This document shows, one piece after another, positions 7,351-45,053 of a stretch of DNA of 64,000 nt. The position numbers and the translations under genes were made by a program. The notes below the pieces were generated by a model, which made no database searches, was not told where the DNA came from, and saw only the letters and a program-made list of their open reading frames with translations. Source of the stretch: Antedon bifida (lineage: Eukaryota; Echinodermata; Crinoidea; Comatulida; Antedonidae); contig OY727103.1 in NCBI GenBank assembly GCA_963402885.1, positions 9,028,501 to 9,092,500 on the forward strand. The letters are read 5' to 3'. Position 1 is the first letter of the stretch; each line of letters opens with the position of its first letter.

Positions 7351-7387
7351 GATCAAGGGAATGTATGCCCACTCTTATGTACTTTAC

Positions 7388-7498
7388 CTTATTCTGTAAT
7401 GTTGGAGATACACCAATTTTAATGAGATTAGTCACTATTCCTAACGTAGGTTTAACATATCTACCACTTAGATGTATATGTAGAGCATTGCTTCCATC
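7388..7498 (-). CDS. Ankyrin-repeat exon (NALHIHLSGRY type)
   Basis: A 111-nt, 37-codon phase-0 exon with acceptor TTTTAG and donor GTAAAG. It encodes DGSNALHIHLSGRY, then a P-T-L-G-I-V helix, and ends TLQNK. The ALH turn and the following helices fit an ankyrin repeat with two extra residues. Four intact copies exist (7388, 9194, 15909, 17301) plus one truncated copy at 18097. Confidence 0.78.
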
Positions 7499-7743
7499 CT
7501 AAAAAAAATAAAAAATGTTATATTTTTAATTAATAGATATTTTTAAATCAAATTAATCGAAAGTCGCTAAAATGTATTATTTATACCAAGAGAAGTTGCA
7601 TCATGTTAATAATAATCAACATAATATAGTACAATACCTTCTTACATTTGAAGGTAAAAAACGAAGAAAAAATAATAATTATCATTAAGCATACTATTAC
7701 CAGTATGCCATACTATTGCAATTTAAAATTGTTTTCAAATTAC

Positions 7744-7848
7744 CTCTTTTGGTAATGTTGGTGATTCTCCATTGGTTATCAGACAGTACAATATCTCTAA
7801 TTTAACATCATCACGCTCCAGGTAAATATTTATCGGTGTGTATCCATT
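7744..7848 (-). CDS. Ankyrin-repeat exon (NGYTPINIYLERDD type)
   Basis: A 105-nt phase-0 exon with acceptor TTCACAG and donor GTAATT. It encodes NGYTPINIYLERDDVK, then LEILYCLITNGESP, ending PKE. TPIN replaces the usual TPLH, but spacing and helices are ankyrin-like. It always lies about 250-350 nt from the IHLSGRY-type exon, so the two were duplicated as a pair. Confidence 0.78.
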
Positions 7849-9193
7849 CTGTGAATAAATCATCCAAAAAACATCAAATATAATGATTCTTATTCTTATT
7901 GTTAGACACAACTGATAACATGATTCGTTGTTGTTGTTTTGTGGCTGATGCAACATGAATAATATTATAAGACATATTGTGTTCACAAACACTTCAGATA
8001 CAGGAATACTCATACTTTTTACTTATACAATTATAAGGAATGGCAGAACGTATGTTTGTTTAATATTTGTTGCTCATTCATCAATACTGTATTACAAATA
8101 CATATAATAAAATGACAGGATGAGAGCAAGATGATAACTCTATAAGCTCTAGAGCTTGTTTTCATAAGGACTCCCGACATAAAAAAACAACATACACCAA
8201 CAATCTTAATTAACTAGCAAATCCTAATTAAATCATAAGTTGCAAAGCAGAAGATGTGTTTAAGTGTATATTTGAATTGATTATGGTTTCCAATGTCCTT
8301 TAAACTGTTATGTGACACATATTTCGTAAGGAACCAACTTTCTCACGTGTGTTGATCATTTAAAAAAGATGGACGCTTACAAGAGGTGGTGGTTCTGTGG
8401 TGGTCACTAAATTAATTAAAGGGGTAGTGGTCGCTTAAGAGAGGTGATGGTCCTTTAAAAAGATGATATCTAACAAGAAGTAAAGTCAATATATCTTAAT
8501 TGATCAGTGTTATTTCCATCTTATTTATTTTTTTTTATCTAGTATTAAATTATCTCTATCCCTATTACCTCATGCTATGTGATATGAAGATATATTATTA
8601 CATAATATTGAAGACGTACGTAAGGCACTTTTCTCTCAAGTTCATTATAAATCACACGTACTTATTTTATACAGTAACAAATTAAATTAAACAAACGATG
8701 CGGATAATTTAAAAAATATATATTTTCATTTCCTATTTAGAGATTTAATCTCGGTACCACGAACGTTAGAGGTGTCCAACTGTATTTGCTTGCTGTAACC
8801 ACTCTTGTGCAGGTATAGAGTTATGAACAACACCACACTGTTTTGCTATGTCGAAACCGCCTTTATAAAGATATATTATTGTATAAAAATGAAGACGTAC
8901 GTAAACCACTTTTTTCTCAAGTTCATTACAAATCACTAGTATTTATTTTATACAATAAAAATAAAACGATGCCGATAATTAAAAAAATATATTTTTTTAT
9001 TTCCCATTTAGAGATTTAATATCGGTACCACGAATGTTAGAGGTGTCCAACTGTATTTGCTTGTTGTAACCACTCCGATGCAGGTATAGAGTTATGAACA
9101 CAACACTCGTGATCTGAGGTGTATTTGAGTCCCACCCGATAATTACACAATGTTAGATCACGGGAATATAATTCCCACTCTTATGTACTTTAC

Positions 9194-9304
9194 CTTATTC
9201 TGTAATGTTGGAGATACACCAAGATTAATGAGATTAGTCACTATTTCTAACGTAGGTTTAACATATCTACCACTTAGATGTATATGTAGAGCATTGCTTC
9301 CTTC
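9194..9304 (-). CDS. Ankyrin-repeat exon (NALHIHLSGRY type)
   Basis: A 111-nt phase-0 exon with acceptor TTTTAG and donor GTAAAG. It encodes EGSNALHIHLSGRY and a C-terminal half like 7388-7498. It is open and belongs to the second sub-module of copy 1. Confidence 0.78.
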
Positions 9305-9547
9305 CTAAAAAAATAAAAAATGTTATGTTTATAATAAATAAATATTTTTAAATCAAATTAATCGAAAGTCGCTAAATGTATTATTTATACCAAGAGAAGT
9401 TGCATCATGTTAATAATAATTAACATATGGGTATAGTATACCTTCTTACATTTGAAGGTAAAAAACGAAGCAAAAATAATAATTATCATTAAGCATACTA
9501 TTACCAGTATGCTATACTATTGCAGTTTACATTTTTTGTCAAATTAC

Positions 9548-9652
9548 CTCTTTTGGTAATGTGGGTGATACACCATTGGTTATCAGACAGAACAATATCT
9601 CTAATTTAACATCATCACGCTCCAGATAAATAGTTATCGGTGTGTATCCATT
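9548..9652 (-). CDS. Ankyrin-repeat exon (NGYTPINIYLERDD type)
   Basis: A 105-nt phase-0 exon with acceptor TTCACAG and donor GTAATT. It encodes NGYTPITIYLERDDVK and LEILFCLITNGVSP, ending PKE. It is open and paired with 9194-9304. Confidence 0.78.
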
Positions 9653-10040
9653 CTGTGAAGAAATCATACACATCAAATATAAAGATTCTTATAAATGATA
9701 CTGTTAGACACAACTGATAACATGATTGGTTGTTGTTGTTTTGTGGCTGATGCAACATGAATATTATAAGACATTATTGTGTTTACAAAACACTTCAGAT
9801 ACAGGAATACTCATACTTTTTACTTATACAATTATAAGGAATGGCAGAACGTTTGCTTGTTTTATATTTGTTGCTCATTCACCAATACTGTATTACAAAT
9901 ACATATAATAAAATGGCAGGATGAGAGCAAGATGATAACTCTATAATCTCTAGAGCTTGTTTCAATAAGTACTCCCGATATAAAAAAAAACAATATACAT
10001 CAACAGTCTTAATTAACAAGCAAATCCTAATTAAATCAAT

Positions 10041-12616: not shown

Positions 12617-13771
12617 CTATAATGAATTCATAATCATGATGTTTATATACATACATGTTTTTACAGCAAATAATTGTAGTTAAGTATAATAATAAACAAA
12701 TTAAAATAAAACGTGTATAGGTGTATAATTATGCTGTGAACGTATTCTCAATATATAACAGCACTAAGCTAAAATGTGTCTATCTCCTCCCAAACTGTAA
12801 GTCCGATACTAGCGCCGTTCGAGATGGTGCACCTTTTAACTCTCCTCTATCCATTAGTTTATATTATAACTAACAATTTGTACGAAAAGTGTGTTTTTAG
12901 GCCCATTTCTTTGCAACTGCCGAATGCCAATTATCGGCCATTTTCCTTCGTCACAATTAGACAGAGGACAGGAGACGGTTTCAGAATGCTGTTAGAGAAG
13001 CCACAATCTGATCAGAGTTTGCTTTGACGACTACGAGGATGAGAATTTTACAGTAGGCGGAGGTATGCACTTTAGGAGTGACTTTCTAGTTATAAGTAGT
13101 ATTCGTACTGGAATAGAAACGTTTGAAAATTCTGCGGCGTGTTCTTCCTGTCATAATTCATTCGTATCATTATTAAATATTTTGATGCCATTGTTGTAAG
13201 TTACATCACACCAAAACATTACATTTTTAAATGGGGTAAAAACAGATAAATAAACATAATTTCGCCGTAAATTTAATATAGAATGACAATCTTTCCAATT
13301 TATAGCTCCGCGGGTGACGTATTTACATCAATCAAGTGACCAAACTAATTTTACGCCTTTTTTGACTTAAAAAAAGAAAAAAAAGATATGATAAGCCCGA
13401 TAATAATTAACTATCATTACCATACACTATATACTATTTAATTACTAAATTAAATTTAAAAATAGTAAAAAATCCATTCCATACAAAATAACTGCTTCCT
13501 CAATCTGGTAATAACTCAGGCAATAATAAACTACGTCTCTTCAAAGGGAACTAATTCCCCCAATAAATGTATAGTATTTATAATTAATGTTAACAAAATG
13601 ATTTTGTTTTTAACTGTATTTGCAATTAAGTTTAAAGTAACATTTAATGAAAGGCATTTTTGTACTAGTATTAGTGTACATGCATGGCGCATGGGCGACG
13701 AAGTCAATTTGCTAGAATTTGGATTATATGTTTTTGAAAAATCAAAACAACTATAATTCAAATGACTAATT

Positions 13772-13796
13772 ATTCATGTGGTGGGGTGTTTCAGTC
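13772..13796 (-). pseudogene. Degenerate ankyrin exon remnant
   Basis: Duplicate of the remnant at 4944-4971: TTTATAG|GACTGAAACACCCC with the same TGA at the second codon. No donor half. Confidence 0.6.
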
Positions 13797-14226
13797 CTAT
13801 AAAGAAATTATGATTTTGGAGTTTATACAAACAGGTTATTGTAGCAAATAGTTATAGTTAGATTATGATACATAATAAACAAATATATTGAAATAAAAGG
13901 TTTTGCTGGTGCATATGTTGTGGACGAAGACTGAAATATATCAATATTGTCTGTGCATTCCTTTATTTTGAAATGTTAATGAAAGGTAAAGAAAAATCCA
14001 AGAAAAGAAAAAGAAATCATAATTGTGTAGTTTATGTGAACATTGTTTTTTGTCATTATTCTAAATTCAACAAATGTATAATGACATGTCCACATAAAAC
14101 TATTTAAAAAATTAATAATTTCATTGCTCAATATGAAATCAAGTGGATAAGATGATATGTTGCGGTGCAGATCATACGTACGTTAGTTGAAATCATATAA
14201 ATTATTTCTAGACCTATTATTATTAC

Positions 14227-14331
14227 CTTATTAAGTGCTGTTATGGATGCACCTTGCTTCGTGAGATAGTTTACTACTTCTAATGTAGGTTCAATTGAAC
14301 ACATGTATTCATGCAGCGGGGTGTTTCCGTC
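14227..14331 (-). CDS. Ankyrin-repeat exon, apparently recombinant
   Basis: A 105-nt phase-0 exon with acceptor TTGATAG and donor GTAATA. It encodes DGNTPLHEYMCSIEP and VVNYLTKQGAS, ending LNK, and is open. Its donor-side flank matches that of exon 5488, while its acceptor-side flank (CTATCAAGAAATTATAATCA) matches exon 5781. The body is a mosaic of the two. This is what unequal crossing-over between adjacent exons would leave. Confidence 0.83.
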
Positions 14332-14813
14332 CTATCAAGAAATTATAATCATGAAGCTTTTACAAACAGTGTATTGCAGCAAATGATTATAGTTAGATGA
14401 TGATAAACATTACACAAAGAAATTGAAATAAAACGTTTTTCTTGTGCATATCCTGTGAACGTACACCGATTTTTATCAATTGTCTCTTATATTGTAGTTT
14501 TACAGAATCATAAAAGAAATCATAATCGTGTAGTTTATGCATACAGGTTAACGTGAACATTGCTTTTTGTCATGATTCTAAATTCAGCTCTTTTATAATG
14601 ACATGTCCACATAAAACATAGTAAATATACCAATCTCACAATAACTGTAGGATCTTGTTTAATTACTACTAAATAATTATTGCAGCAAGTAATTCTAAGT
14701 AACTTAATCAATTGTAATATGATATAAAATAAGTGGATAAGATATTGTTGCGGTGCAGATCATACGTACGTTATAGGTGTAATCATAATAACTTATCTGT
14801 AACCCTATATTAC

Positions 14814-14918
14814 CTTATTTAGTGCTGTTATTGAAGCACCTTGTTTCCTAAGATAGTTTACTACTTCTAAGGTAGGTTTATTTGAACGCAAGTATTCATG
14901 CAGCGGGGTGTTTCCGTC
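14814..14918 (-). pseudogene. Ankyrin exon with mutated splice acceptor
   Basis: The 105-nt frame is open (DGNTPLHEYLRSNKP type, ending LNK) and the donor GTAATA is intact. The acceptor reads TATAA|GAC instead of TATAG|GAC. The only AG is now shifted one base into the exon, so using it would break the frame. The exon is probably skipped or inactive, although a substitution of this kind could also be an assembly error. Confidence 0.65.
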
Positions 14919-15305
14919 TTATAAAGAAATTATACATACAGGTTATTGCAGAAAATCATTTTAGTTATGCAATGATAAATAATACACAAATAAATTAAAA
15001 TAAAGGTTTTGCTGGCAGGTGCTTATGCTCTGAACGTAGACCGAATTATATCAATTGTCTGTGGATTCCCTAATTTTGCAATTTTACTGACAAAAGAAAT
15101 CATAATCGTGTAGTTTATACATACAGATTAATGTGAACATTGCTTCCATTCATTATTCTAAATTCAACCATTCTATAATGACATGTCCACATAAAACATA
15201 GTTAAATTGATAATTCATTCAATAAATTATCTCTATCCCTATTACCTTATGTTATGTGATATGAAGATGTAATATTACATAATAATGAAGACGTACGTAA
15301 GGCAC

Positions 15306-15597
15306 TGTGGCGCAGTGGTTAGAGCATTGGACTTGCAATCAAGAGGTTGCCGGTTCAAGCCCGGCCGGTCACTGCGGTGTTGAGTCCTTGAGCAAGATTC
15401 TTTATCCACATTGTTTCTCCCCACCCAGGTGGTATGTTAAAAGTACTGGGAAGGTAAATCAGATTCGTTTGTGCGGGAGGAGTGGCGTACCCCCGCAAAC
15501 ATACACACTTAGTGAAGCCTGGCCCAAACGCTAAGGAAATGGAGATGGGCACCAAGGCCGTTAGCATTAGCTTAGGTTTCGACTTTACTACTTTACT
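15306..15597 (+). mobile_element. tRNA-derived SINE, copy 2
   Basis: Paralogue of 6770-7084, duplicated with its surroundings. A box TGGCGCAGTGG, apparent anticodon TGC, B-box region GGTTCAAGCCC. Flanking repeats TACGTAAGGCAC (15294-15305) and TACGTAGGACAC (15598-15609) are the target-site duplication. It lacks about 14 bp found in copy 1 between TSD and head, and a short segment near 15432. Confidence 0.85.
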
Positions 15598-15908
15598 TAC
15601 GTAGGACACTTTTCTCTCAAGTTCATTATAATTCATACGTACTTATTTTAATTTCGTATACAATACAAAATTAAATTAAACAAAGGATGCGGATAATTAA
15701 AAAAATATATATTTTCATTTCCTATTTAGAGATTTAATCTCGGTACCACAAACGTTAGTGGTGTCCAACTGTATTTGCTTGCTGTAACCACACTTGTGCA
15801 GGTATAGAGTTATGAACAACACTAGTGATCTTGGGTGTGTTTGAGTCCCACCCGATAATTACACAATGTTAGATCACGGGAATATATGCCCACACTTATG
15901 TACTTTAC

Positions 15909-16019
15909 CTTATTCTGTAATGTTGGAGATACACCAAGTTTAATAAGATTAGTCACTATTCCTAACGTAGGTTTAACATATCTACCACTCAGATGTATAT
16001 GTAGAGCATTGCTTCCTTC
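15909..16019 (-). CDS. Ankyrin-repeat exon (NALHIHLSGRY type)
   Basis: A 111-nt phase-0 exon with acceptor TTTTAG and donor GTAAAG. It encodes EGSNALHIHLSGRY and ends TLQNK. It is open and the counterpart of 7388-7498. Confidence 0.78.
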
Positions 16020-16261
16020 CTAAAAAAAAATAAAATGTTATATTTTTAATAAATAAATATTTTTAAATCAAATTAATCGAAAGTCGCTAAAATGTATTAT
16101 TTATACCAAGAGAAGTTGCATCATGTTAATAATAATTAACATACAGTACATTACCTTCCTACGTTTGAAGGTAAAAAACGAAGCAAAACATAATAATTAT
16201 CATTAAGCATACTATTACCAGTTTGTCATACTATTGCAATTTAACATTTTTGTCAAATTAC

Positions 16262-16366
16262 CTCTTTTGGTAATGTTGATGATTCACCATTGGTTATCAG
16301 ACAGTACAATATCTTTAATTTAACATCATCACGCTCCATATAAATATTTATCGGTGTGTATCCATT
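16262..16366 (-). CDS. Ankyrin-repeat exon (NGYTPINIYMERDD type)
   Basis: A 105-nt phase-0 exon with acceptor TTCACAG and donor GTAATT. It encodes NGYTPINIYMERDDVK and LKILYCLITNGESS, ending PKE. It is open and the counterpart of 7744-7848. Confidence 0.78.
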
Positions 16367-17300
16367 CTGTGAATAAATCATAAACAAAAAATATAAGGAT
16401 TTTTATTCTTATTGTTAGACACAACTGATAACATGATTGATTGTTGTTGTTTTGTGGCTGATGCAATATGAATATTATAAGACATATTGTGTTTACAAAA
16501 CACTTCAGATACAGGAATACTCATACTTTTTACTCATACAATTATAAGGAATGGCAGGTCGTTTGTTTGTTTTATATTTGTTGCTCATTCATCAATACTG
16601 TATTACAAATACATATAATAAAATGACAGGAGGAGGGCAAGATGATAACGCTATAAGCTCTAGAGCTTGTTGCCATAAGGACTCCCGACATAAAAAAAAA
16701 CAACATACACCAACAATCTTAATTAACAATCAAATCCTAATAAAATCATAAGTTGCAATGCAGAAGATGTGTTTAAGTGTATATTTGAATTGATTATGGT
16801 TTCCAATGTCCTTTAAGCTATTATGTGACACATATATCGTAAGCAACCACCTTCCTTACGTGTGATGATCCTTTAAAAGAGATGGACGCTTACAAGAGGT
16901 GGTGGTTCTTTAAAAGTGGTGGTAAATTATCTCTATCCCTATTACCTCATGCTATGTGATATGAAGATATATTATTACATAATATTGAAGACGTACGTAA
17001 GGCACTTTTCTCTCAAGTTCATTATAAATCACACTTACTTATTTTATACAATAACAAATTAAATTAAACAAAGGATGAGGATAATTACAAAAATATATAT
17101 TTTCATTTCCTATTTAGAGATTTAATCTCGGTACCACGAACGTTAGTGGTGTCCAACTGTATTTGATTGCTGTAACCACTCTTGTTCAGGTATAGAGTTA
17201 TGAACAACACCATACTCGTGATCTGAGGTGTGTTTGAGTCCATCCCATAATTACACAATGTTAGATCACGGGAATATATGCCCACTCTTATGTACATTAC

Positions 17301-17411
17301 CTTATTCTGTAATGTTGGAGATACACCAAGTTTAATGAGATTAGTCACTATTCCTAACGTAGGTTTAACATATCTACCACTTAGATGTATATGTAGAGCA
17401 TTGTTTCCTTC
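17301..17411 (-). CDS. Ankyrin-repeat exon (NALHIHLSGRY type)
   Basis: A 111-nt phase-0 exon with acceptor TTTTAG and donor GTAATG. It encodes EGNNALHIHLSGRY and LIKLGVSPTLQNK. It is open, in the second sub-module of copy 2. Confidence 0.78.
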
Positions 17412-17625
17412 CTAAAAAATAAAAAATGTTATATTTTTAATAAATAAATATTTTTAAAGTCGCTAAAATGTATTATTTATACCAACAGAAGTTGCATCAT
17501 GTTTATAATAATTAACATATAGTACAATACCTTCTTACGTTTGAAGGTAAAACATAATAATTATCATTAAGCATACTATTACCAGTATGATATACTATTG
17601 CAATTTAACATTTTTGTCAAATTAC

Positions 17626-17730
17626 CCCTTTTGGTAATGTTGGTGATTCACCATTGGTTATCAGACAGTACAATATCTCTAATTTGAGATCATCACGCTC
17701 CAGATAAATATTTATCGGTGTGTATCCATT
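17626..17730 (-). CDS. Ankyrin-repeat exon (NGYTPINIYLERDD type)
   Basis: A 105-nt phase-0 exon with acceptor TTCACAG and donor G|GTAATT. It encodes NGYTPINIYLERDDLK and LEILYCLITNGESP, ending PKG. It is open and paired with 17301-17411. Confidence 0.78.
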
Positions 17731-18096
17731 CTGTGAATAAATCATAAACATAAAATATAAAGATTCTTATTCTTATTGTTAGACACAACTGATAACATGA
17801 TTGATTGTTGTTGTTTTGTGGCTGATGCAACATGAATATTATAAGACATCATTGTGTTTACAAAACACTTCAGATACAGGAATACTCATACTTTTTACTC
17901 ATACGATTATAAGGAATGGCAGAACGTTTGTTTGTTTTATATTTGTTGCTCATTCATCAATACTGTATTACAAATACAAATAATAGAATTACAGGATGAG
18001 AGCAAGATTATAACTATATAAGCTCTAGAGCTTGTTTCCATAAGGACTCCCGACATAAAAAAACAACATACACCAACAATCTTAATTAACAAGCAA

Positions 18097-18187
18097 ATAC
18101 ACCAAGCTTAATGAGATAAGTCACTATTTCTAACGTAGGTTTAACATATCTACCACTTAGATGTATATGTAGAGCATTGCTTCCCTT
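18097..18187 (-). pseudogene. Truncated ankyrin exon (IHLSGRY type)
   Basis: The acceptor half matches exons 7388 and 15909 (NALHIHLSGRY). The donor and final codons are gone: at about 18096 the sequence switches to intron-like CTTAATTAACAAGCAAATAC. This is a deletion joint between exon and intron, so the exon cannot be spliced normally. Confidence 0.7.
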
Positions 18188-18410
18188 CTAAAAAAAATGT
18201 TATATTTTTAATAAATAAATATTTTTAAATCAAATTAATCGAAAGTCGCTAAAATGTATTATTTATACCAAGAGAATTAATAATAATTAACATACAGTAC
18301 AATACCTTCCTACGTTTAAAGGTAAAAAATGATTAAAAAATATATTTGCGGTGTAGATCATACGTACGCTATATATGTAATCATATACATTATCTCTAGA
18401 CCTATATAAC

Positions 18411-18515
18411 CTTATTTTGTGCTGTTACGGATGCACATTGCTTTGTGAGATAGTCTACTACTTCTAAGGTAGGTTTATTTGAATGCATTTATTTATGCAG
18501 CGTGGTGTTTCCGTC
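18411..18515 (-). pseudogene. Ankyrin exon with in-frame stop
   Basis: A 105-nt exon with intact acceptor (TTGATAG) and donor (GTTATA). The frame reads DGNTTLHK and then TAA at the ninth codon. Including it would end the protein early. It sits at the right end of the second ankyrin set, just before the fold-back element. Confidence 0.72.
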
Positions 18516-19092
18516 CTATCAAGAAATTATAATCATGAAGTTTATACATACAGTGTATTGAAGCAAATAATTATAGTTAGGTAATGATAAATAATACACA
18601 AAGAAATTGAAATGAAAGGTTTTGCTGGTGCATATGATGTGAACATAGACCGAATTATATCAATATTGTCTGTGCATTTCCTTATTTTGCAATGTTACTG
18701 ATAAAAGAAATCATAATCGTGTAGTTTATACATACAGGTTTATGTCAACATTGCTTTCTGTCATGATTCTAAATTCAACATTATAATACTATGTCTACAT
18801 AAAACATAGTTCAATTAATAATTTTATTGCAAAATATACCAATCTAACAATAACAGTAGGATCTTGTTTAATTACTACTAAATAATTATTGCAGCAAGTA
18901 ATTCTAAATAACTCAATCAATTGTAATACGATATCAAATAAAGTGAATAATAATATTATTAAATTTCTTTCATTCTTAAACTTCCTTCTAATATATATGC
19001 TGTATAACGTACCTCGCAGCACTATACATCCAAACCGAAGATATGCCCCTGTCGGTAACCAAGGTTCGGTAGTAAATTGAAACCTGGTGAGG
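18516..19092. other. Intron-like sequence up to the fold-back boundary
   Basis: 18516-18950 is similar to ankyrin intron blocks (CATAATCGTGTAGTTTATAC, GATCTTGTTTAATTACTAC). After about 18960 the similarity stops. GGTGAG at 19086-19091 may be the left target duplication of the fold-back element. No gene seen. Confidence 0.5.
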
Positions 19093-34470: not shown

Positions 34471-34965
34471 ACGGGTGACGAGTGACGGTATGATTAGAAA
34501 TGATATCATAGAGCCTAGTTGCAGTGCTTGGTATGATTAGATATTGTATTAGTATAACTTCCAACGCAAGATAAATCTTATCCTTTTTGCACTGATTACC
34601 GGAACGTTAATATCTACTACAGATTCGTATCTCATACCGAGGATAGAGAACTGTAATGATCGTGTGGCTAGTGCTTTGTTTGACAGTAAGTTTGACCTCC
34701 TGAAGTGTTACTGACTAATTACTTTAATATAACGTGTGAAAGAAGAGTCAGCAATCGATTATTATGATGTCATAATTGTTTCTACAAACACATGTCGTTC
34801 ATGACATGTCTTCATTTATTTTTTCATTCATTCAATAACTGCTTTTAGAATTCGCAATAAATAATTATAAATAAGTAATACTTAATATGAATGAGAGGTC
34901 ATAAATGGAATAGAGATGTTTGCTGAAACCGATAATGTTTTATTAATACTGGCATAATATACCAG

Positions 34966-35026
34966 CCACTATTTCTGTTGTAGGGTTGGCATATCGGAAA
35001 TACGTATGTAGTGGAGTGTCTCCAAG
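34966..35026 (-). pseudogene. Truncated type A ankyrin exon
   Basis: Acceptor CTAG and the first about 20 codons match the array's type A exons (LGDTPLHTYFRYANPTT). The donor-side half has been deleted and joined to intron sequence at about 34963. It cannot be spliced as a normal exon. Confidence 0.7.
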
Positions 35027-35468
35027 CTAGAAAGAAATCATAATCATATAGTTTATAAATATAAATTCCAGCTGTAATGCAATCATATTTTTCGGTCATG
35101 TCATATTGATAATGGTTGGACATTCTACATTGTTATGACAAAAGTGTACAAAACAATCAAAATCAGCTACATTCATTCGTACTTTATGTACAACACATCT
35201 GGCTTGTTACATATAGCATGCCATACTGACCAACGTCAACGCAACTAACAATCAGTACTTGAAAACCGGTACGCTTGCAAAACGTTTTTTTCGCGTACTT
35301 ATCTATCGTATTTGATTGAATAAAAAAAAAGAAATTTACGCCTTTATAAAATAGGACCCAAATACAATTATTCCAAGAGTTGAATATTATATTATTTAAA
35401 CTAGACAGATAACTTGAAGTGCTACTATAATTGTAATATAATCTGTGAATTAATATTTATTGACTTTA

Positions 35469-36639
35469 CTAGAGGGTGAGCTTGCTTCGCTCGCTCCCCT
35501 TCTAGGAAGTGTAGTAATGATAATGACTCTGGTAAAAAGAACATTCTGGCCTGGACGATTTCGGTCGGTTACCATCATTAAAATGCTTTTGATATTCGTT
35601 TAACCTGTTTCACAGTGTCTTAGATGATTAATAGCGTTTTACGTATAGTGTTTATTGTAGATATGAAAAGTGGTAAAAAAGAATAACAAATGCTTGGGAA
35701 ATTGTAGACTACAGTCCGATGAAATCTACTAAAAATAGTATAATTGTGTTTATAAATATAATACAATATTGTGTGTATAAATGTGGATGGGCGTTTATTC
35801 GATGGTATTTGGATGGGGGGTGGGGAGGAAAGGCGGTAATTATTTTAGTTTTAGTTTATTGGGAAGGTGTTCCGGGCGTTTATTCAAATAAATACCATCC
35901 TAATTGGTATAATTAATAAATTATTCCGCGACACAGTGAGCCATTTTTGCCTAAGAACGAAGACGTTTTAGACGGCTTGCAACACTGGCCAGAAGTATCA
36001 CAGTGCCCTAACGGGACACAGATAGTGCACAGTATACATAAAGTCCTGGCAGCTTATACTCAACAACTCGGCTATCGGAGTTTCATTCGATTTCAAACAA
36101 AAGCTGTTATCATCAGTTCTCTCGGTGTAATGTTATATAAATATTTCCCACAATTTACTCCTATGTTTTATGAATATATTTAATTTGATCTTTATGTAGG
36201 CCTACTACTATATACCTTCACACGCGCGGTCCGAAAATATAAAAAACAAAATGGCTATCGCCACCAAGCACCAACGGCCAACTTAGTTGAAACAGGGAGT
36301 TGTTTTAAAACTCCCTGGTAGAAACCATGACGACCTTGCATGGAATAGTAGCAAGGTGATTGACACACCTTACCGTGAACCCGGAAATTACTTCTACTTC
36401 TACCGCACATAGAGTTAAAATTTACCGATTGAAATTGAAATTTTGTTATAAAACCCTTTATAATATCCTCCTAAGATAGAAATATGGAACAATATCGTAA
36501 TAGTGGAAACTAATGTTATCAAATCTACGTTTCGCGGTACATCTGAGATAGATAAGGTAGGTATCCAAGGCAGAGATTTATACCGAAGTTTTTGCATTGT
36601 GCTCGCCTATGTCGGAATTAACCATAATTTATATATAGA
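35469..36639 (-). mobile_element. Helitron (non-autonomous) in the exon array
   Basis: The 5' end is TCTATATATAAATT (reading leftwards from 36639). The 3' end is a hairpin (35471-35503, CTTCGCTCGC loop region) ending CTAG at 35472-35469. It is flanked by A and T, and the same site is uninterrupted in the other array units (TTGACTTTA|TGCAATG at 37850), which fixes the boundaries. It contains GC-richer cargo at 35780-36370 without a recognisable gene, and no Rep/helicase. Confidence 0.85.
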
Positions 36640-36856
36640 TGCAATGTAATATTGTTTCTAAAAATACATGTCGGTTATGGCATGTCTTCATTTCTTGTTT
36701 CATACAATAACTGCTTCTAAAATTCGCATTAAATAATTCAAAATAATTAATATTAATTATAAATTACATGTTATAAATGAAATAGAGATGTTCGCTGGAA
36801 CAGATACTGTTTTCATAATAATGACATAAAGACCACGATGATTGTGTGTACATAAC

Positions 36857-36952
36857 TACATGTTGTGATGTTACTGATGCGCCATACTATGTGAGACAAG
36901 TCACTATTGCTGTTAGAATATCGCAAATAGTGGTAGTGTAGTGTCTCCATAC
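36857..36952 (-). pseudogene. Type B ankyrin exon, frameshifted
   Basis: First of six type B exons. The acceptor CTAG is intact and the donor here is GTTATG. The start reads YGDTTLH as in ankyrin, but an 8-bp deletion after the first third shifts the frame and removes the second helix. Length is not a multiple of three. Confidence 0.6.
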
Positions 36953-37391
36953 TAGAAAGAAGTCATATTCATATAATGTATTCATATTTGTTTGTTATGT
37001 TAAATTAAGACCCAATGAAATTAGTTCAAGAATAGTAACTATATTCTAACCAGCTTAAAAAAAATAGACAGATAAATTGAAGAACTACTATAATTGTAAT
37101 ACAATGTGTAAATGACAATCGATTATATGACGTCATAATTGGCGAGACACACTTAGTTATACTATGGAATAATTGTTTTTACAAACACATATCGATCATG
37201 GCATGTCTGCATATTATAATTTTTATTTAATTTATTTTTTATTTAATAACTGTTTTTAAATTTGCAATACCTACTTCTAAATAATTCATATAATTATAAA
37301 AGAGACGTCGAAAATGGAATAGAGATGTTTGCTTGAACCGATAATGTTTCATTAATACTGGCATAATAGACCTCCTAAAATTGTATGTTAC

Positions 37392-37496
37392 CTTATTTCG
37401 TGACGTTACTACTGCCCCGTGTTGTATGAGATAATCCACTATTTCTGTTGTAGGGTTGGCAAATAGTAAATACACATGTAGTGGAGTGCTTCCAAA
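37392..37496 (-). CDS. Type A ankyrin exon, array unit 1
   Basis: A 105-nt phase-0 exon with acceptor CTAG and donor GTAACA. It encodes FGSTPLHVYLLFANPTT, then EIVDYLIQHGAVV, ending RNK. It is a complete ankyrin repeat and the most diverged of the intact type A exons on the left side of the array. Confidence 0.83.
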
Positions 37497-38070
37497 CTAG
37501 AAAGAAATCATAACCATGTAGTAGCAAATATCAATTCCAGCTGTAATGCAATCGTATATTTTGGTCATGCCACATTGATAATGGTTGTCAATTCTACATT
37601 GTTATGACAAAATCTTCTGAATGTACAAAACAATAAAAATCAGCTAAATTCATTTGTAAATTATTTACCACACATAGCTTGTTACATAGCATACCGTACT
37701 GACCAACATCAACGCAATAAAATTATTTCAAGAGTTGATTATTATATTATATAAACCAACTTAAACAAACTAGACAGATAAATTAAAAAATAAATAAATT
37801 AATGTGCTACTATAATTGTAATACAATGTGTGAATTAATATTAATTGACTTTATGCAATGTAATATTGTTTCTAAAAATATATGTCGGTTATGGCATGTC
37901 TTCATTTCTTGCTTCATTCAATAACTGCTTCTAAAATTCGCAATAAATAATTCAAAATAATTAATATTAATTATAAATTACATATTATAAATGAAATAGA
38001 GATATTTGCTGGAACAGATACTGTTTTCATAATAATGACATAAAGACCACTATGATTGTGTGTACATTAC

Positions 38071-38167
38071 TACATGTTGTGGTGTTATTGATGCGCCATA
38101 CTATGTGAGACAAGTCACAATTGCTGTTAGAATATCGCAAATACCTATGTAGTTTAGTGTCTCCATA
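38071..38167 (-). pseudogene. Type B ankyrin exon, frameshifted
   Basis: 97 nt between acceptor CTAG and donor GTAATG. Starts YGDTKLHRYLRYSN, after which an 8-bp deletion relative to type A (CAACCCTACAACAGA region) shifts the frame. It has no stop within it, but inclusion would shift the downstream frame. Confidence 0.65.
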
Positions 38168-38602
38168 CTAGAAAGAAGTCATATTCATGTAATGTATTCA
38201 TATTTTTTATGTTAAATTAAGACCCAATGAAATTAGTTCAAGAATAATAAATATGTTCTAACCAGCTTAAAAAATAGACAGATAAATTGAAGAACTACTA
38301 TAATTGTAATACAAATGTGTGAATGACAATCGATTATATGACGTCATAATTGGCGAGAAACACTTAGTTATACTATGGAATAATTGTTTGTACAAACACA
38401 TATCGATCATGGCATGTCTGCATAATATAGTTTTTAATTAATTTATTTTGTATTTAATAACTGTTTTTGAATTTGCAATACCTACTGCTAAATAATTCAT
38501 ATAATTATAAAAGAGACGTCATGAATGGAATAGAGACGTTTGCTTGAACCGATAATGTTTTATTAATACTGGCATAATAGACCTCCTAAAATTGTATGTT
38601 AC

Positions 38603-38707
38603 CTCATTTTGTGACGTTGCTGATGCGCCGTGTTGTATGAGATAATCCACTATGTCTGTTGTAGGGTTGGCATATCGTAAATACACATGTAGTGGAGTGT
38701 ATCCAAG
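38603..38707 (-). CDS. Type A ankyrin exon, array unit 2
   Basis: A 105-nt phase-0 exon with acceptor CTAG and donor GTAACA. It encodes LGYTPLHVYLRYANPTT, DIVDYLIQHGASA, ending QNE. Identical to unit 3 by eye. Confidence 0.85.
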
Positions 38708-39298
38708 CTAGAAAGAAATCATAACCATGTAGTAGTAAATGTCAATTCGAGCTGTAGTGTAATCACATTTTGGTCATGCCACATTGATAATGGTTGTAAA
38801 TTGTACATTGTTATGACAAAATCTCCTGAGTGTAAAAAACAATAAAAACCAGCTAAACTCATTTGTACATTATTTACCACACATAGCTTGTTAAATAGCA
38901 TACCGTACTGACCAACGTCAACGCAACAGTCTACTTGTCTACGTCTTTATAAAATAGGACCCAAATAAAATAATTTCAAGAGTTGATAATTATATTATAT
39001 AAACCAACTTAAACAACCTAGACAGATAAATTAAAGTGCTACTAAAATTGTAATACAATTTATGAATTAGTATTAATTGACTTTATGCAATGTAATATTG
39101 TTTCTAAAAATACATGTCGGTTATGGCATTCATTTCTTGTTTCATTCAATAACTGCTTCTAAAATTCGCAATAAATAATTCAAAATAATTAATATTAATT
39201 ATAAATGACATATTATAAATGAAATAGAGATGTTTGCTGGAACAGATACTGTTTTCATAATAATGACATAAAGACCACTATGATTGTGTGTACATTAC

Positions 39299-39395
39299 TA
39301 CATGTTGTGGTGTTACTGATGCGCCATACTATGTGATACAAGTCACAATTGCTGTTAGAATATCGCAAATACCTATGTAGTGTAGTGTCTCCATA
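39299..39395 (-). pseudogene. Type B ankyrin exon, frameshifted
   Basis: 97 nt with the same 8-bp deletion as the other type B exons. Acceptor CTAG and donor GTAATG are both preserved. Confidence 0.65.
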
Positions 39396-39833
39396 CTAGA
39401 AAGAAGTCATATTCATGTAATGTATTCATATTTTTTTATGTTAAATTAAGACCCAATGAAATTAGTTCAAGAAAAATAAATATGTTCTAACCAGCTTAAA
39501 AAAAATAGACAGATAAATTGAAGAACTACTATAATTGTAATACAAATGTGTGAATGACAATCGATTATATGACGTCATAATTGGCGATAAACACTTAGTT
39601 ATACTATGGAATAATTGTTTGTACAAACACATATCGATCATGGCATGTCTGCATAATATAGTTTTTAATTAATTTATTTTGTATTTAATAACTGTTTTTG
39701 AATTTGCAATACCTACTGCTAAATAATTCATATAATTATAAAAGAGACGTCATGAATGGAATAGAGACGTTTGCTTGAACCGATAATGTTTTATTAATAC
39801 TGGCATAATAGACCTCCTAAAATTGTATGTTAC

Positions 39834-39938
39834 CTCATTTTGTGACGTTGCTGATGCGCCGTGTTGTATGAGATAATCCACTATGTCTGTTGTAGGGTTG
39901 GCATATCGTAAATACACATGTAGTGGAGTGTATCCAAG
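39834..39938 (-). CDS. Type A ankyrin exon, array unit 3
   Basis: A 105-nt phase-0 exon, LGYTPLHVYLRYANPTT type, ending QNE. It repeats unit 2 exactly 1,231 bp away, including most of the intron. Confidence 0.85.
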
Positions 39939-40529
39939 CTAGAAAGAAATCATAACCATGTAGTAGTAAATGTCAATTCGAGCTGTAGTGTAATCACATT
40001 TTGGTCATGCCACATTGATAATGGTTGTAAATTGTACATTGTTATGACAAAATCTCCTGAGTGTAAAAAACAATAAAAACCAGCTAAACTCATTTGTACA
40101 TTATTTACCACACATAGCTTGTTAAATAGCATACCGTACTGACCAACGTCAACGCAACAGTCTACTTGTCTACGCCTTTATAAAATAGGACCCAAATAAA
40201 ATAATTTCAAGAGTTGATAATTATATTATATAAACCAACTTAAACAACCTAGACAGATAAATTAAAGTGCTACTAAAATTGTAATACAATTTATGAATTA
40301 GTATTAATTGACTTTATGCAATGTAATATTGTTTCTAAAAATACATGTCGGTTATGGCATTCATTTCTTGTTTCATTCAATAACTGCTTCTAAAATTCGC
40401 AATAAATAATTCAAAATAATTAATATTAATTATAAATGACATATTATAAATGAAATAGAGATGTTTGCTGGAACAGATACTGTTTTCATAATAATGACAT
40501 AAAGACCACTATGATTGTGTATACATTAC

Positions 40530-40626
40530 TACATGTTGTGGTGTTACTGATGCGCCATACTATGTGATACAAGTCACAATTGCTGTTAGAATATCGCAAA
40601 TACCTATGTAGTGTAGTGTCTCCATA
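40530..40626 (-). pseudogene. Type B ankyrin exon, frameshifted
   Basis: 97 nt, same deletion and splice sites, 1,231 bp from the previous type B exon. Confidence 0.65.
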
Positions 40627-41064
40627 CTAGAAAGAAGTCATATTCATGTAATGTATTCATATTTTTTTATGTTAAATTAAGACCCAATGAAATTAGTTCA
40701 AGAAAAATAAATATGTTCTAACCAGCTTAAAAAAAATAGACAGATAAATTGAAGAACTACTATAATTGTAATACAAATGTGTGAATGACAATCGATTATA
40801 TGACGTCATAATTGGCGAGAAACACTTAGTTATACTATGGAATAATTGTTTGTACAAACACATATCGATCATGGCATGTCTGCATAATATAGTTTTTAAT
40901 TAATTTATTTTTTATTTAATAACTGTTTTTGAATTTGCAATACCTATTGCTAAATAATTCATATAATTATAAAAGAGACGTCATGAATGGAATAGAGACG
41001 TTTGCTTGAACCGATAATGTTTTATTAATACTGGCATAATAGACCTCCTAAAATTGTATGTTAC

Positions 41065-41169
41065 CTTATTTTGTGACGTTGCTGATGCGCCGTGTTGTAT
41101 GAGATAATCCACTATGTCTGTTGTAGGGTTGGCATATCGTAAATACACATGTAGTGGAGTGCTTCCAGA
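41065..41169 (-). CDS. Type A ankyrin exon, array unit 4
   Basis: A 105-nt phase-0 exon with acceptor TATAG and donor GTAACA. It starts SGSTPLHVYLRYANPTT and ends QNK. It differs from units 2-3 mainly at the first codons and the final codon. Confidence 0.85.
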
Positions 41170-41761
41170 CTATAAAGAAATCATAACCATGTAGTAGTAA
41201 ATGTCAATTCGAGCTGTAGTGTAATCATATTTTGGTCATGCCACATTGATAATGGTTGTAAATTGTACATTGTTATGACAAAATCTTCTGAGTGTAAAAA
41301 ACAATAAAAACCAGCTAAACTCATTTGTACATTATTTACCACACATAGCTTGTTAAATAGCATACCGTACTGACCAACGTCAACGCAACAGTCTACTTGT
41401 CTACGCCTTTATAAAATAGGACCCAAATAAAATAATTTCAAGAGTTGATAATTATATTATATAAACCAACTTAAACAACCTAGACAGATAAATTAAAGTG
41501 CTACTAAAATTGTAATACAATTTATGAATTAGTATTAATTGACTTTATGCAATGTAATATTGTTTCTAAAAATACACGATCGGTTATGGCATTCATTTCT
41601 TGTTTCATTCAATAACTGCTTCTAAAATTCGCAATAAATAATTCAAAATAATTAATATTAATTATAAATTACAAATTATAAATGAAATAGAGATGTTTGC
41701 TGGAACAGATACTGTTTTCATAATAATGACATAAAGACCACTATGATTGTGTGTACATTAC

Positions 41762-41858
41762 TACATGTTGTGATGTTACTGATGCGACATACTATGTGAG
41801 ACAAGTCACTATTGCTATTAGCATATCGCAAATACCTATGTAGTGTAGTGTCTCCATA
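41762..41858 (-). pseudogene. Type B ankyrin exon, frameshifted
   Basis: 97 nt, same 8-bp deletion, acceptor CTAG and donor GTAATG. Confidence 0.65.
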
Positions 41859-42293
41859 CTAGAAAGAAGTCATATTCATGTAATGTATTCATTTTTTTAT
41901 GTTAAATTAAGACCCAATGAAATTAGTTCAAGAATAGTAACTATATTCTAACCAGCTTAAAAAAATAGACAGATAAATTGAAGAACTACTATAATTGTAA
42001 TACAAATGTGTGAATGACAATCGATTATATGACGTCATAATTGGCGAGACGCACTTAGTTATACTATGGAATAATTGTTTGTACAAACACATATCGTTCA
42101 TGGCATGTCTGCATAATATAGTTTTTAATTAATTTATTTTTCATTTAAAACCTGTTTTTGAATGTGTAATACCTACTTCTAAATAATTCATATAATTATA
42201 AAAGAGACGTCATAAATGGAATAGAGATGTTTGCTTGAACCGATAATGTTTTATTAATACTGGCATAATAGATATACTATAATTGTATGTTAC

Positions 42294-42386
42294 CTTATTT
42301 TGTGACGTTACTGATGCGCCGTGTTGTATGTCTGTTATATGGTTGTTGGCACATCGTAAATACACATGTAGTGGAGTGTTTCCAAA
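42294..42386 (-). CDS. Type A ankyrin exon, unit 5, shortened in frame
   Basis: A 93-nt (31-codon) phase-0 exon with acceptor CTAG and donor GTAACA. It encodes FGNTPLHVYLRCANNHIT, then DIQHGASV, ending QNK. Relative to its neighbours a net 12 nt is missing, removing the VDYLI part of the second helix while keeping frame. The repeat would probably fold poorly, although the transcript stays in frame. Confidence 0.75.
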
Positions 42387-42978
42387 CTAGAAAGAAATCA
42401 TAACCATGTAGTAGTAAATATCAATTCCAGCTGTAATGCAATCATATATTTCGGTCATGCCACATTGATAATGGTTGTAAATTCTACATTGTTATGACAA
42501 AATCTTCTGAGTGTACACAACAATAAAAACCAGCTAAATTCATTTGTACATTATTTACCACACATAGCTTGTTACATACCGTACAGACCAACGTCAACGC
42601 AACAGTCTACTTGTCTACGCCTTTTTAAAAGAGGTCCCAAATAAAATTATTTCAAGAGTTGATTATTATATTATATAAACAAACTTAAACAAACTAGAGA
42701 GATAAATTAAAGTGCTACTATAATTGTAATACAATGTTTGAATTAATATTAATTGACTTTATGCAATGTAATATTGTTTCTAAAAATACATGTCGGTTAT
42801 GGCATGTCTTCATTTCTTGTTTCATTCAATAACTGCTTCTAAAATTCGCAATAAATAAATCAAAATATATAATATTAATTATAAATTACATGTTATAAAT
42901 GAAATAGAGATGTTTGCTGGAACAGATACTGTTTTCATAATAATGACATAAAGACCACTATGATTGTGTGTACATTAC

Positions 42979-43075
42979 TACATGTTGTGATGTTACTGAT
43001 GCGCCATACTATGTGAGACAAGTCACTATTGCTGTTAGAATATCGCAAACAACTATGTAGTGTAGTGTCTCCATA
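42979..43075 (-). pseudogene. Type B ankyrin exon, frameshifted
   Basis: 97 nt, same 8-bp deletion, acceptor CTAG and donor GTAATG. Rightmost type B exon. Confidence 0.65.
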
Positions 43076-43513
43076 CTAGGAAGAAGTCATATTCATGTAA
43101 TTTATTCTTTTTTTTTTGTTATGTTAAATTAAGACCCAATGAAATTAGTTCAAGAATTATAATTATATTCTAACCAGCTTTTAAAAAAATAGACAGATAA
43201 ATTGAAGAACTACTATAATTGTAATACAAATGTGTGAATGACAATCGATTATATGACGTCATAATTGGCGAGACGCACTTAGTTATACTATGGAATAATT
43301 GTTTGTACAAACACATATCGATCATGGCATGTCTGCATAATATAGTTTTTAATTAATTTATTTTTTATTTAATAACTGTTTTTGAATTTGCTATACCTAT
43401 TTCTAAATAATTCATATAATTATAAAAGAGACGCCATAAATGGAATAGAGATGTTTGCTGGAACCGATAATGTTTATTTATACTGGCATAATATACCTAC
43501 TATTGTATGTTAC

Positions 43514-43618
43514 CTTATTTTGTGATGTAATTGCTGCGCCATGCCGTATGAGACAAGCCACTATTTCTATTTTAGGATTGTCATTGAAAAAATACACATG
43601 TAGTGGATTGTTTCCATT
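43514..43618 (-). CDS. Type A ankyrin exon, array unit 6
   Basis: A 105-nt phase-0 exon with acceptor CTAG and donor GTAACA. It encodes NGNNPLHVYFFNDNPK, then EIVACLIRHGAAI, ending QNK. More diverged than the central units, with changes concentrated in the first helix and the loop. Confidence 0.83.
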
Positions 43619-44212
43619 CTAGAAAGAAATCAAAAACATGCAGTTTATAAATATCAATTCCAGCTGTAATGCAATCATATATTTCGGTCATGCCACATTG
43701 ATAATGTTGTAAATTCTACATTGTTATGACAAAATCTTCTGAGTGTACTAAACAATAAAAACCAGCTAAATTCATTTGTACATTATTTACCACACATAGC
43801 TTGTTACATAGCACACCGTACAGACCAACGTCAACGCAACAGTCTACTTGTCTACGCCTTTTTAAAATAGGACCCAAATAAAATTATTTCAAGAGTTGAT
43901 TATTGTATTACATAAACCAACTTAAACAAACTAGACAGATAAATTAAAGTGCTACTATAATTGTAATATAATGTGTGAATTAATATTAATTGACTTAATG
44001 CAATGTAATATTGTTTATAAAATACATGTCGGTTATTGCATGCCTTCGTTTATTGTTTCATTCAATAACTGCTTCTAAAATTCGCAATGAATAATTCTAA
44101 ATAATTAATTTTAATTATAAATGACAAATTATAAATGAAAGAGAGATGTTTGCTGGATCAGATAGGCCTACTGTTTTCATAATAACAATCAGTATGATTG
44201 TGTGTACATTAC

Positions 44213-44320
44213 CATAGTATCTAGTGACGTTACTGATGCGCCGTGTTGTATGACATAATCCACAATTTCTGTTGTAGGGTTGGCACATTGTAAATACGTA
44301 TGTAGTGGAGTGTATCCATA
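44213..44320 (-). CDS. Intact ankyrin exon in the type B position
   Basis: A 108-nt (36-codon) phase-0 exon with acceptor CTAG and donor GTAATG. It encodes YGYTPLHTYLQCANPTT, EIVDYVIQHGASV, ending LDTM. Its donor-side flank (TGATTGTGTGTACATTAC) is that of type B exons, but the body lacks the 8-bp deletion. It looks like the undamaged relative of type B, and the first full ankyrin repeat after the N-terminal exon. Confidence 0.82.
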
Positions 44321-44965
44321 CTAGAAAGAAATCATAATCATGTAGTTTATAATTATCAATTCCAGCTGTAATTCTAACATGTTTTTTATTCAAGGCACAT
44401 TGACAATTGTTGTAAATTCAACACTGTTATGATTATGACTAAAATCAGTTAAATTTACACTACGTTTAATAACATGCTAATCTCACAAATCATGAAAAAG
44501 TGAATACATAGTTGCTGTTGTCGATTGTCAAAGAAATGTGAGTCTAGTCACCGTTATAAATTATCTGTATAATTATTTCGAAAAAGTCTTACTAGATTGG
44601 ATTTAGATGAACTCAAATATGCTTTTGAAGCTTTTTTTTACATACAAAAATTGGCTCTTGACTTTAAACTGTCATTCTGAAGTCGGCCAACCCTCTACAG
44701 TAACTGTACACATCGATCTCATAATTTAAGACAAATATTAATAGTAAGTACTGATTAATATTGTCACTAAGTGTATTTGTTTAATTTGCAGCATTCGTCA
44801 CTGACGCATGTGTTATTGATCCAGGATATTATACAGTAATCATTATATTTGAATATAGGTATAATGATTACATTTTACAATTTACTTAATGTATGGTCTT
44901 CTTGGAACTAATTGAATGACTATACTGTCTTATTAGTAATATGGAAAGCCCATCCTTTGTTTTAC

Positions 44966-45053
44966 CTTATCTTTGTTTTTCAAAAGATCAGGATTTTTCT
45001 GACATATTTCTTTAATTTGTTGCAAGTCATTCATCTTAAAAGCATCTTGTAAT
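44966..45053 (-). CDS. N-terminal ankyrin-type exon
   Basis: An 88-nt exon with acceptor GTTACAG and donor GTAAAA: one base then 29 codons. The peptide starts LQDAFKMNDLQQIKEICQ and ends KNKDK, the usual capping first helix pair at the start of ankyrin domains. It leaves in phase 0, matching every downstream ankyrin exon. Its first base completes a Gly codon with GG from the micro-exon at 45184. Confidence 0.8.

What the first reader, a model, noticed from the sequence alone, without database searches (positions are those of the whole stretch)
34730..44450. Tandem cassette array that multiplies single ankyrin-repeat exons
Six to seven direct units of about 1,231 bp each carry a 105-nt phase-0 exon encoding exactly one ankyrin repeat. 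Any number of units can be added, lost or skipped without breaking frame. Central units are nearly identical and outer units diverge, the mark of ongoing unequal exchange. Coupled to a Roc GTPase and an N-terminal cap exon, this could be a copy-number-variable or alternatively spliced recognition protein. The immune or recognition role is inference only.
Basis: partly seen in the sequence, partly recalled or inferred. Interest (0 to 1): 0.78.

Follow-up and report, generated by a model that had tools for sequence, protein, structure and literature searches.

The report
Exon-array ankyrin ROCO receptor-like gene
An animal gene from a large family carries a tandem array of exons that each encode one ankyrin repeat, linked to a GTPase switch and a probable cell-death adaptor domain; exon number differs between sister genes and the predicted binding surface changes unusually fast, as expected of a recognition receptor.

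Summary
The array is real and on the minus strand. It holds seven open ankyrin exons (five of 105 nt, one 93, one 108; all phase 0, AG/GT). The gene model continues through 15 further ankyrin exons, some broken, to Roc, COR and a weak C-terminal DED match, partly outside the window. Fourteen close paralogs lie on 1.2 Mb of the same contig, with 0 to 7 array exons assigned to each by position (lower bounds). The P-loop exon has 150 matches genome-wide (capped list; about half at 55% identity or more). In 26 array exons nonsynonymous change at concave (binding-face) positions is 2.2 times synonymous (bootstrap 1.8-3.2), core 0.30; B-type exons of the same genes give 0.39 and 0.37. Best reading: an intracellular recognition-receptor family diversified by exon-array turnover, comparable to exon-shuffled LRR-ROCO genes of brown algae. 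Splicing, copy-number polymorphism, ligand and immune role were not testable. New variant of a known kind.

The parts
44966..45053 (-). N-terminal ankyrin cap exon (LQDAFKMNDLQQIKEICQKNPDLLKNKDK), 88 nt, phase 0 at its 3' end; caps also found in four paralog places
44213..44320 (-). A-type ankyrin exon 1 (108 nt); groups with the first exons of three of four other arrays
43514..43618 (-). A-type ankyrin exon 2 (105 nt)
42979..43075 (-). frame-broken ankyrin exon (8-bp deletion, 97 nt to gtaatg; 102 nt open to gtacac)
42294..42386 (-). A-type ankyrin exon 3 (93 nt, in-frame loss in helix 2)
41762..41858 (-). frame-broken ankyrin exon
41065..41169 (-). A-type ankyrin exon 4 (105 nt)
40530..40626 (-). 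frame-broken ankyrin exon
39834..39938 (-). A-type ankyrin exon 5 (105 nt), identical to exon 6
39299..39395 (-). frame-broken ankyrin exon
38603..38707 (-). A-type ankyrin exon 6 (105 nt)
38071..38167 (-). frame-broken ankyrin exon
37392..37496 (-). A-type ankyrin exon 7 (105 nt)
36839..36969 (-). sixth copy of the frame-broken exon type with altered sequence (blastn match to exon plus flank)
34966..35026 (-). truncated A-type exon relic (LGDTPLHTYFRYANPTTEIV)
13359..18702 (-). second ankyrin block: exons at 18515 (B, in-frame stop), 18187 (C, broken end), 17730 (D), 17411 (C), 16366 (D), 16019 (C), 14918 (B, acceptor lost), 14331 (B)
4535..9998 (-). third ankyrin block; pieces 92-97% identical to the second at offsets of 8.4-8.8 kb: exons at 9652 (D), 9304 (C), 7848 (D), 7498 (C), 6472, 5885, 5592 (B)
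1630..1800 (-). open frame holding the Roc exon with P-loop GKEGAGKT
289..537 (-). open frame holding a Roc exon with the WDYAGQ motif; the gene continues below window position 1 with the rest of Roc, COR and the DED-like last exon

Best explanation
The window holds most of one member of a large ANK-ROC-COR-DED gene family. Its N-terminal array of phase-0, single-ankyrin exons grows and shrinks by unequal exchange: the ends tend to stay position-specific, the centre is replaced by fresh copies, and units are also exchanged or duplicated between sister genes. Each exon adds one ankyrin repeat, so exon number and order set the length and face of an elongated binding surface. Change at the concave face of the A-type repeats is in excess of synonymous and intron change, which points to diversifying selection, while B-type repeats of the same genes are conserved. 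The protein most likely works as an intracellular recognition receptor: the variable A repeats bind a rapidly changing ligand, the other repeats act as a more constant stalk or adaptor, the ROC-COR GTPase switches or dimerises, and the DED-like tail passes the signal to death-effector or caspase-type partners. Shown: exons, frames, splice sites, paralog cluster, exon-number differences, substitution pattern, ROC-COR. Inferred: that all blocks form one transcript, the receptor role, the ligand, the signalling. The frame-broken second exon of each unit is most likely a decayed passenger carried along in the dimeric unit.
For: Exons and frames. ROC-COR: on exons joined by hand, COR-A 39.5 bits (cut-off 35.3), Roc 22-24 bits (cut-off 27), COR-B 20.5 (cut-off 27), solved Roco protein 3dpu E 1.4e-7. 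DED: 25.4, 29.2 and 28.7 bits in the 3 of 3 genes scanned (cut-off 35.9), followed by a stop in the window gene. Order: the sister gene at C16:8.3086-8.3379 Mb has cap, five A exons, Roc, COR and DED in 29 kb with no other ankyrin match in that tblastn; the genes with P-loops at 8.367 and 8.453 Mb follow the window's order, with only a partial DED for the first and the cap outside the held letters for the second. Cluster: 14 P-loop exons at 88-100% identity on C16:8.138-9.347 Mb; A exons per gene 1,5,3,6,4,0,4,2,3,0,2,7,5,3. Exchange: unit identities; in the tree, first exons of three genes group (1.0; a fourth joins at 0.97), the lowest-placed exons of two genes group (1.0), the window centre groups (0.98); a paralog 245 kb away has 99%-identical unit pieces. 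Substitutions: concave pN/pS 2.22 (bootstrap over sequences 1.8-3.18), core 0.30, position permutation P 0.003; window exons alone 3.09 and 0.47. An overlapping face set (recalled from DARPin design) has pN 0.374 against intron divergence 0.178 and exceeds it in 90% of 325 pairs. B-type control concave 0.39, core 0.37.
Against: No transcript, protein or population data. Some exons are broken: 93-nt exon 3; B exon at 18515 with a stop; B exon at 14918 without AG; C exon at 18187; one paralog A exon without AG and the first exon of the 9.24-Mb gene without the GT at the 108-nt site. Convex and basal positions are near neutral (1.11, 1.27), so relaxed constraint contributes. The 9 C-type exons give pN/pS 1.21 on few differences (pS 0.04) and the 6 D-type 0.72, so 'only A varies' rests on the B comparison. 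One of five first exons (8385315) does not group with the others. Pairwise counts are not independent and ignore gene conversion. Whole-genome Roc and COR-A profile searches do not list the window gene's single exons; only joined exons reach the COR-A cut-off. DED and Roc stay below Pfam cut-offs, and the PDB search with the DED exon found nothing. The phases of the last B exon and of the P-loop exon do not meet, so a linking exon is missing from the model; I did not search for it.
Confidence: 0.55

Rival explanations
1. Ordinary scaffold ankyrin gene whose intron-exon units duplicate by chance; the variation is relaxed constraint, and the family is large only because tandem duplication is frequent here.
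For: Single-repeat phase-0 exons can duplicate without harm; convex and basal sites near neutral; C-type exons at 1.21; several broken exons.
Against: Concave nonsynonymous change exceeds synonymous and intron change while core is at 0.30; B-type repeats in the same genes are constrained at the same positions.
Confidence: 0.25
2. The array is non-functional: a pseudogenised exon block that multiplies like intronic satellite DNA.
For: Beside the seven open exons the array holds five frame-broken ones, a sixth altered copy and a truncated relic.
Against: Open A exons keep frame and core residues over about 16% synonymous divergence, and 25 of 26 keep the AG, whereas the frame-broken exon shows no codon-position bias (0.043, 0.054, 0.041 in 10 copies) and diverges about as its flanks (0.046 against 0.039 and 0.080).
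Confidence: 0.1
3. The frame-broken second exon is a regulated exon: used at gtacac it gives an in-frame 102-nt exon, used at gtaatg it shifts the frame and lowers or truncates the product.
For: In 10 of 10 copies counted both GT sites and the AG are kept and the 102-nt frame is open; an 11th copy, at 8497042, also has no stop but was missed by the script's anchor and left out of the counts.
Against: No codon-position bias in its substitutions; its second half is shifted out of the ankyrin frame; kept sites may only reflect short time.
Confidence: 0.08
4. Assembly artefact: collapsed or inflated repeat.
For: Two central units are 99.2% identical, the kind of repeat that assemblers can miscount; no reads to check.
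Against: No Ns in the held stretches; units differ, ends are distinct, and similar arrays with own variants occur in sister genes.
Confidence: 0.02

Closest known systems
LRR-ROCO genes of brown algae (Teng et al. 2024, PMC11378527: abstract, section 10 and passages seen; Zambounis et al. 2012 known only through it, paper not held)
   Same: ROC-COR GTPase with an N-terminal array of exons that each encode one repeat in one phase; exon shuffling; positively selected sites on the concave side; proposed immune receptors.
   Different: There 72-bp phase-2 LRR exons, LRR-ROC-COR as the only architecture, 9-47 genes per species; here 105-nt phase-0 ankyrin exons, a DED-like tail and 150 P-loop exon matches (capped list, related and more distant). 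Alternative splicing is reported there, untested here.
Fungal NOD-like receptors with ANK/TPR/WD repeats (Dyrka et al. 2014, PMC4986451: passages seen)
   Same: Highly alike repeats, repeat-number polymorphism, positive selection mapped with one exception to the concave face of the ANK repeats studied.
   Different: Repeats are C-terminal and the switch is a NOD domain, not ROC-COR; no exon-per-repeat structure in the passages read.
Sea-anemone immune genes with Roc/COR domains (PMC5094078: passages seen)
   Same: Animal genes proposed as immune in which a Roc/COR GTPase is joined to repeats or death-type domains.
   Different: Those carry LRR and TIR_2, or kinase, Death and TIR domains; no ankyrin exon array in the passages read.
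DAPK-type ROCO proteins of animals (architecture recalled; reviews PMC6337361 and PMC6320773 seen only in a search listing)
   Same: Ankyrin repeats, ROC-COR and a C-terminal death-fold domain in that order.
   Different: DAPK1 has an N-terminal kinase and a Death domain; here a simple pattern scan saw no HRD-type kinase motif and the tail resembles DED.

Membership tests
ROCO (ROC-COR) proteins | Roc GTPase domain with P-loop | tested here: met
   GKEGAGKT and WDYAGQ motifs; Pfam Roc 22-24 bits, below its cut-off of 27, but solved Roco proteins 3dpu and 6hlu match at E 1.4e-7 and 1.3e-6 (exons joined by hand)
ROCO (ROC-COR) proteins | COR domain directly after Roc | tested here: met
   COR-A 39.5 bits over cut-off 35.3; COR-B 20.5 below 27 (exons joined by hand)
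DAPK family | N-terminal protein kinase domain | tested here: inconclusive
   no HRD..N motif on the minus strand of the 114 kb held around the gene; a pattern scan, not a profile search
DAPK family | C-terminal Death domain | tested here: inconclusive
   Pfam lists only DED for the last exon, at 25.4-29.2 bits in three genes, below cut-off 35.9
Exon-shuffled ROCO genes (brown-algal kind) | one repeat per exon, all in one phase, in tandem array | tested here: met
   (ankyrin instead of LRR)
Exon-shuffled ROCO genes (brown-algal kind) | diversifying selection on the concave face | tested here: met
   by pairwise counting, not by PAML
Exon-shuffled ROCO genes (brown-algal kind) | alternative splicing of array exons | not testable with these tools
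   no RNA data
Exon-shuffled ROCO genes (brown-algal kind) | LRR repeats | tested here: not met
   ankyrin repeats

The most novel reading that the evidence does not exclude
An animal lineage has, in parallel with brown algae, turned ROCO proteins into a recognition repertoire of perhaps a hundred or more genes in which single-repeat exon arrays are the unit of diversification: array length and content differ between genes and probably between individuals, and may be combined further by exon skipping, so each animal carries its own set of ankyrin binding faces wired to a GTPase and a death-effector tail.
Probability: 0.25. Interest if true: 0.87.

Novelty: new variant of a known kind. Interest (0 to 1): 0.62.

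Why it matters
Long-standing question: how animals without antibodies make many recognition specificities. This locus offers a concrete, testable case: modular ankyrin exons, array lengths that differ among 14 sister genes, and substitutions focused on the binding face, attached to a switch and a probable cell-death type tail. That the same GTPase core carries exon-shuffled repeats in brown algae and here would point to convergent use of ROCO proteins as receptors.

Tried and rejected
Considered and rejected: (a) the dimeric unit's second exon as a coding exon under constraint: open 102-nt frame in 10 of 10 copies counted, but no codon-position bias. (b) Tunicate origin through a GH6 (cellulose-synthase-linked; recalled) marker: no match, and the control rang nowhere, so uninformative; the species was not identified. 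(c) P-loop exon as AAA/dynein: replaced by ROC-COR once exons were joined. (d) PDB search for the DED exon: no match up to E 1. (e) My first binding-face set was recalled from DARPin design; it was replaced by the published concave set of PMC8415598 Table 1 (passages); both gave the same direction. (f) Literature: (the last returned none); judged by titles and abstract starts, none listed an animal ROCO gene with ankyrin exon arrays; the library lacks most subscription papers and all preprints. No structure prediction was run.

Rows dropped: A3 (93 nt) and the truncated relic were left out of the substitution counts; codons after 31 of five first-position exons were skipped; the B-type control used 15 of the 18 B matches (one with a stop and two partial left out; one of the 15 lacks AG and one lacks GT); 10 of 11 frame-broken copies other than the altered sixth window copy were counted. 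In one search the last window unit was cut past the array and gives 80-82%, and a short 696-bp unit of the 9.24-Mb gene gives 88-90%; neither is in the ranges quoted. For one search, 42 of the 150 matches were picked by hand (C16:8.13-9.38 Mb, at places that also match the unit DNA) and 3 added; one of the 45 lacks its AG.
Full report
Observation. The window lies at C16:9028501-9092500 of an unnamed 315.6-Mb genome, which I take to be an animal's from its size, introns and gene content. Direct repeats with about 1.2-kb spacing run from 37.0 to 43.5 kb. On the minus strand the array holds seven open ankyrin exons with AG before and GT after, and lengths divisible by three: five of 105 nt, one of 93 nt and one of 108 nt. 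A truncated copy lies at 35026-34966. The ankyrin assignment is firm (Pfam Ank E 2.5e-21 on three exons; Ank_2 E 4.7e-61 on a joined set).

Unit anatomy. The unit is a dimer. Between neighbouring open exons, except between the first two, lies a second ankyrin exon that has lost 8 bp. It keeps AG and GTAATG, at which it is 97 nt and breaks the frame; a further GT five bases on would give an open 102-nt exon. In 10 copies counted, substitutions fall about equally on the three codon positions and the exon diverges about like its flanks, so it is most simply a decayed passenger. No array place held at 8.279-8.468 Mb matched it best, so the deletion is probably younger than the family.

Turnover. 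The units starting at 41169 and 39938 are 99.2% identical, their neighbours 96.5-97.1%, the outer one at 43618 93.2-93.8%; full-length units of two sister genes are 92-95% identical to them. In a tree of 26 exons with flanks the first exons of three genes group together (support 1.0, a fourth joins at 0.97, the fifth, 8385315, lies elsewhere), the lowest-placed exons of two genes group together (1.0), and the window's central exons group together (0.98); in the sister gene at 9.24 Mb exons two and five are nearest relatives (0.99). A sister gene at 8.82 Mb has pieces 99% identical to the window unit. Ends are mostly older and position-specific, the centre is young: unequal exchange within the array, with some exchange or duplication between genes.

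The gene. A cap exon lies at 45053-44966. Downstream on the minus strand come two further ankyrin blocks (18.7-13.4 and 10.0-4.5 kb), which share pieces 92-97% identical at offsets of 8.4-8.8 kb and hold 15 exons of types B (105 nt), C (111 nt) and D (105 nt). Some are broken: a stop at 18515, a lost acceptor at 14918, a broken C exon at 18187. The P-loop exon is in 1800-1630; Roc continues in 537-289 and outside the window. Joined Roc and COR exons match COR-A above cut-off and solved Roco proteins; genome-wide profile searches for Roc and COR-A do not list this gene's exons singly. The last exon matches DED weakly in the three genes scanned and ends in a stop in this one. That all blocks belong to one transcript is inferred from order: a 29-kb sister gene at 8.3086-8.3379 Mb has cap, five A exons, Roc, COR and DED with no other ankyrin match in that tblastn, and two more held genes follow the window's order, one with a partial DED, one with its cap outside the held letters. 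A linking exon before the P-loop exon is missing from the model and was not searched for.

The family. Fourteen P-loop exons at 88-100% identity lie on C16:8.138-9.347 Mb, all on the minus strand. A-type exons assigned to them by position number 1, 5, 3, 6, 4, 0, 4, 2, 3, 0, 2, 7, 5 and 3 (45 places picked by hand, lower bounds, assignment by order only). Genome-wide, 150 of 213 P-loop candidates were scored and 150 matched at E up to 0.0024, none with a stop, on ten contigs; by my count of that list about half are at 55% identity or more, the rest at 35-49% and possibly of other ROCO subfamilies. For the DED exon 150 of 526 candidates were scored and listed, many at 31-41% identity. COR-A gave 122 matches of 150 scored (248 candidates), 8 over the cut-off. 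Other regularly spaced ankyrin matches appear, for example C16:8151417-8154638 (about 1,074-bp steps), C8:16381463-16382255 (264), C15:2277658-2278612 (477) and C16:5585162-5586122 (about 320). Exon-array growth therefore looks like a habit of the family, not of this gene alone.

Selection. For 26 A exons (window 6, sister genes 20) pooled pairwise counts give pS 0.161. With the published surface classes of the ankyrin repeat (PMC8415598 Table 1, passages seen) pN/pS is 2.22 on the concave face (resampling of sequences 1.8-3.18), 0.30 in the core, 1.11 convex and 1.27 basal; random sets of eight positions reach the concave value in 0.3% of draws. The six window exons alone give 3.09 concave and 0.47 core. 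With an overlapping face set recalled from DARPin design, pN is 0.374 against an intron divergence of 0.178, and exceeds it in 90% of 325 pairs. B-type exons of the same genes, with a similar pS (0.155), give 0.39 concave and 0.37 core. C-type gives 1.21 overall on few differences and D-type 0.72. So the A array shows change focused on the binding face and the B repeats do not. These counts are not independent and ignore gene conversion.

Reading. The best-supported function is an intracellular recognition receptor whose specificity lies in the A array. ROC-COR as switch and the DED-like tail as signalling end follow from what is known of these domains, not from tests here. The closest published parallel is the brown-algal LRR-ROCO family, where single-repeat exons shuffle, are alternatively spliced and carry positively selected concave sites (PMC11378527, abstract, section 10 and passages); the fungal ANK-type NLRs are a second one (PMC4986451, passages); sea anemones have other Roc/COR immune candidates (PMC5094078, passages). 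This gene works like those; it is a ROCO protein by tested features, DAPK membership is not established, and it differs from the algal kind in repeat type, phase and tail.

Limits. No RNA, no reads, no other individuals, no related species, species unknown. Letters of six of the sister arrays were not held, so their exons were judged by match positions.

Noticed in passing
G000:C15:13461807-13552176 and C15:17167712-17326494: The Roc-family search lists 29 places by my count with matches to the later part of Roc, most in single open frames of about 950-1030 codons, in two clusters: possibly an intronless GTPase family.
   Followed up: no
window 8583-9100, 30259-30786, 33098-33624, 56603-57084: Four head-to-tail dimers with periods of 239-271 bp, two of them 99-100% matching: a recurrent form of two-copy tandem duplication.
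   Followed up: no
window 58783-61746 (-), 49181-52258 (+, interrupted), and 12.0-15.7 kb below the window (L012:4289-8014, +): Frames that look like non-LTR retrotransposon reverse transcriptases (by eye, no profile search); the last lies beyond the DED exon of this gene. Described only.
   Followed up: no
window about 35470-35505 and 46850-46890: Short palindromes of the form ctag...cgcttcgctcg...ctag, possible miniature element ends.
   Followed up: no
G000:C16:8677167-8683999 against C16:9371153-9374192: Two sister arrays whose matching pieces score alike but have four and three A exons assigned, a possible recent exon-number difference judged by positions only.
   Followed up: partly
window 38071-43075: The frame-broken exons keep AG and two GT sites five bases apart that differ in frame; whether the spliceosome ever uses them is open.
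   Followed up: partly
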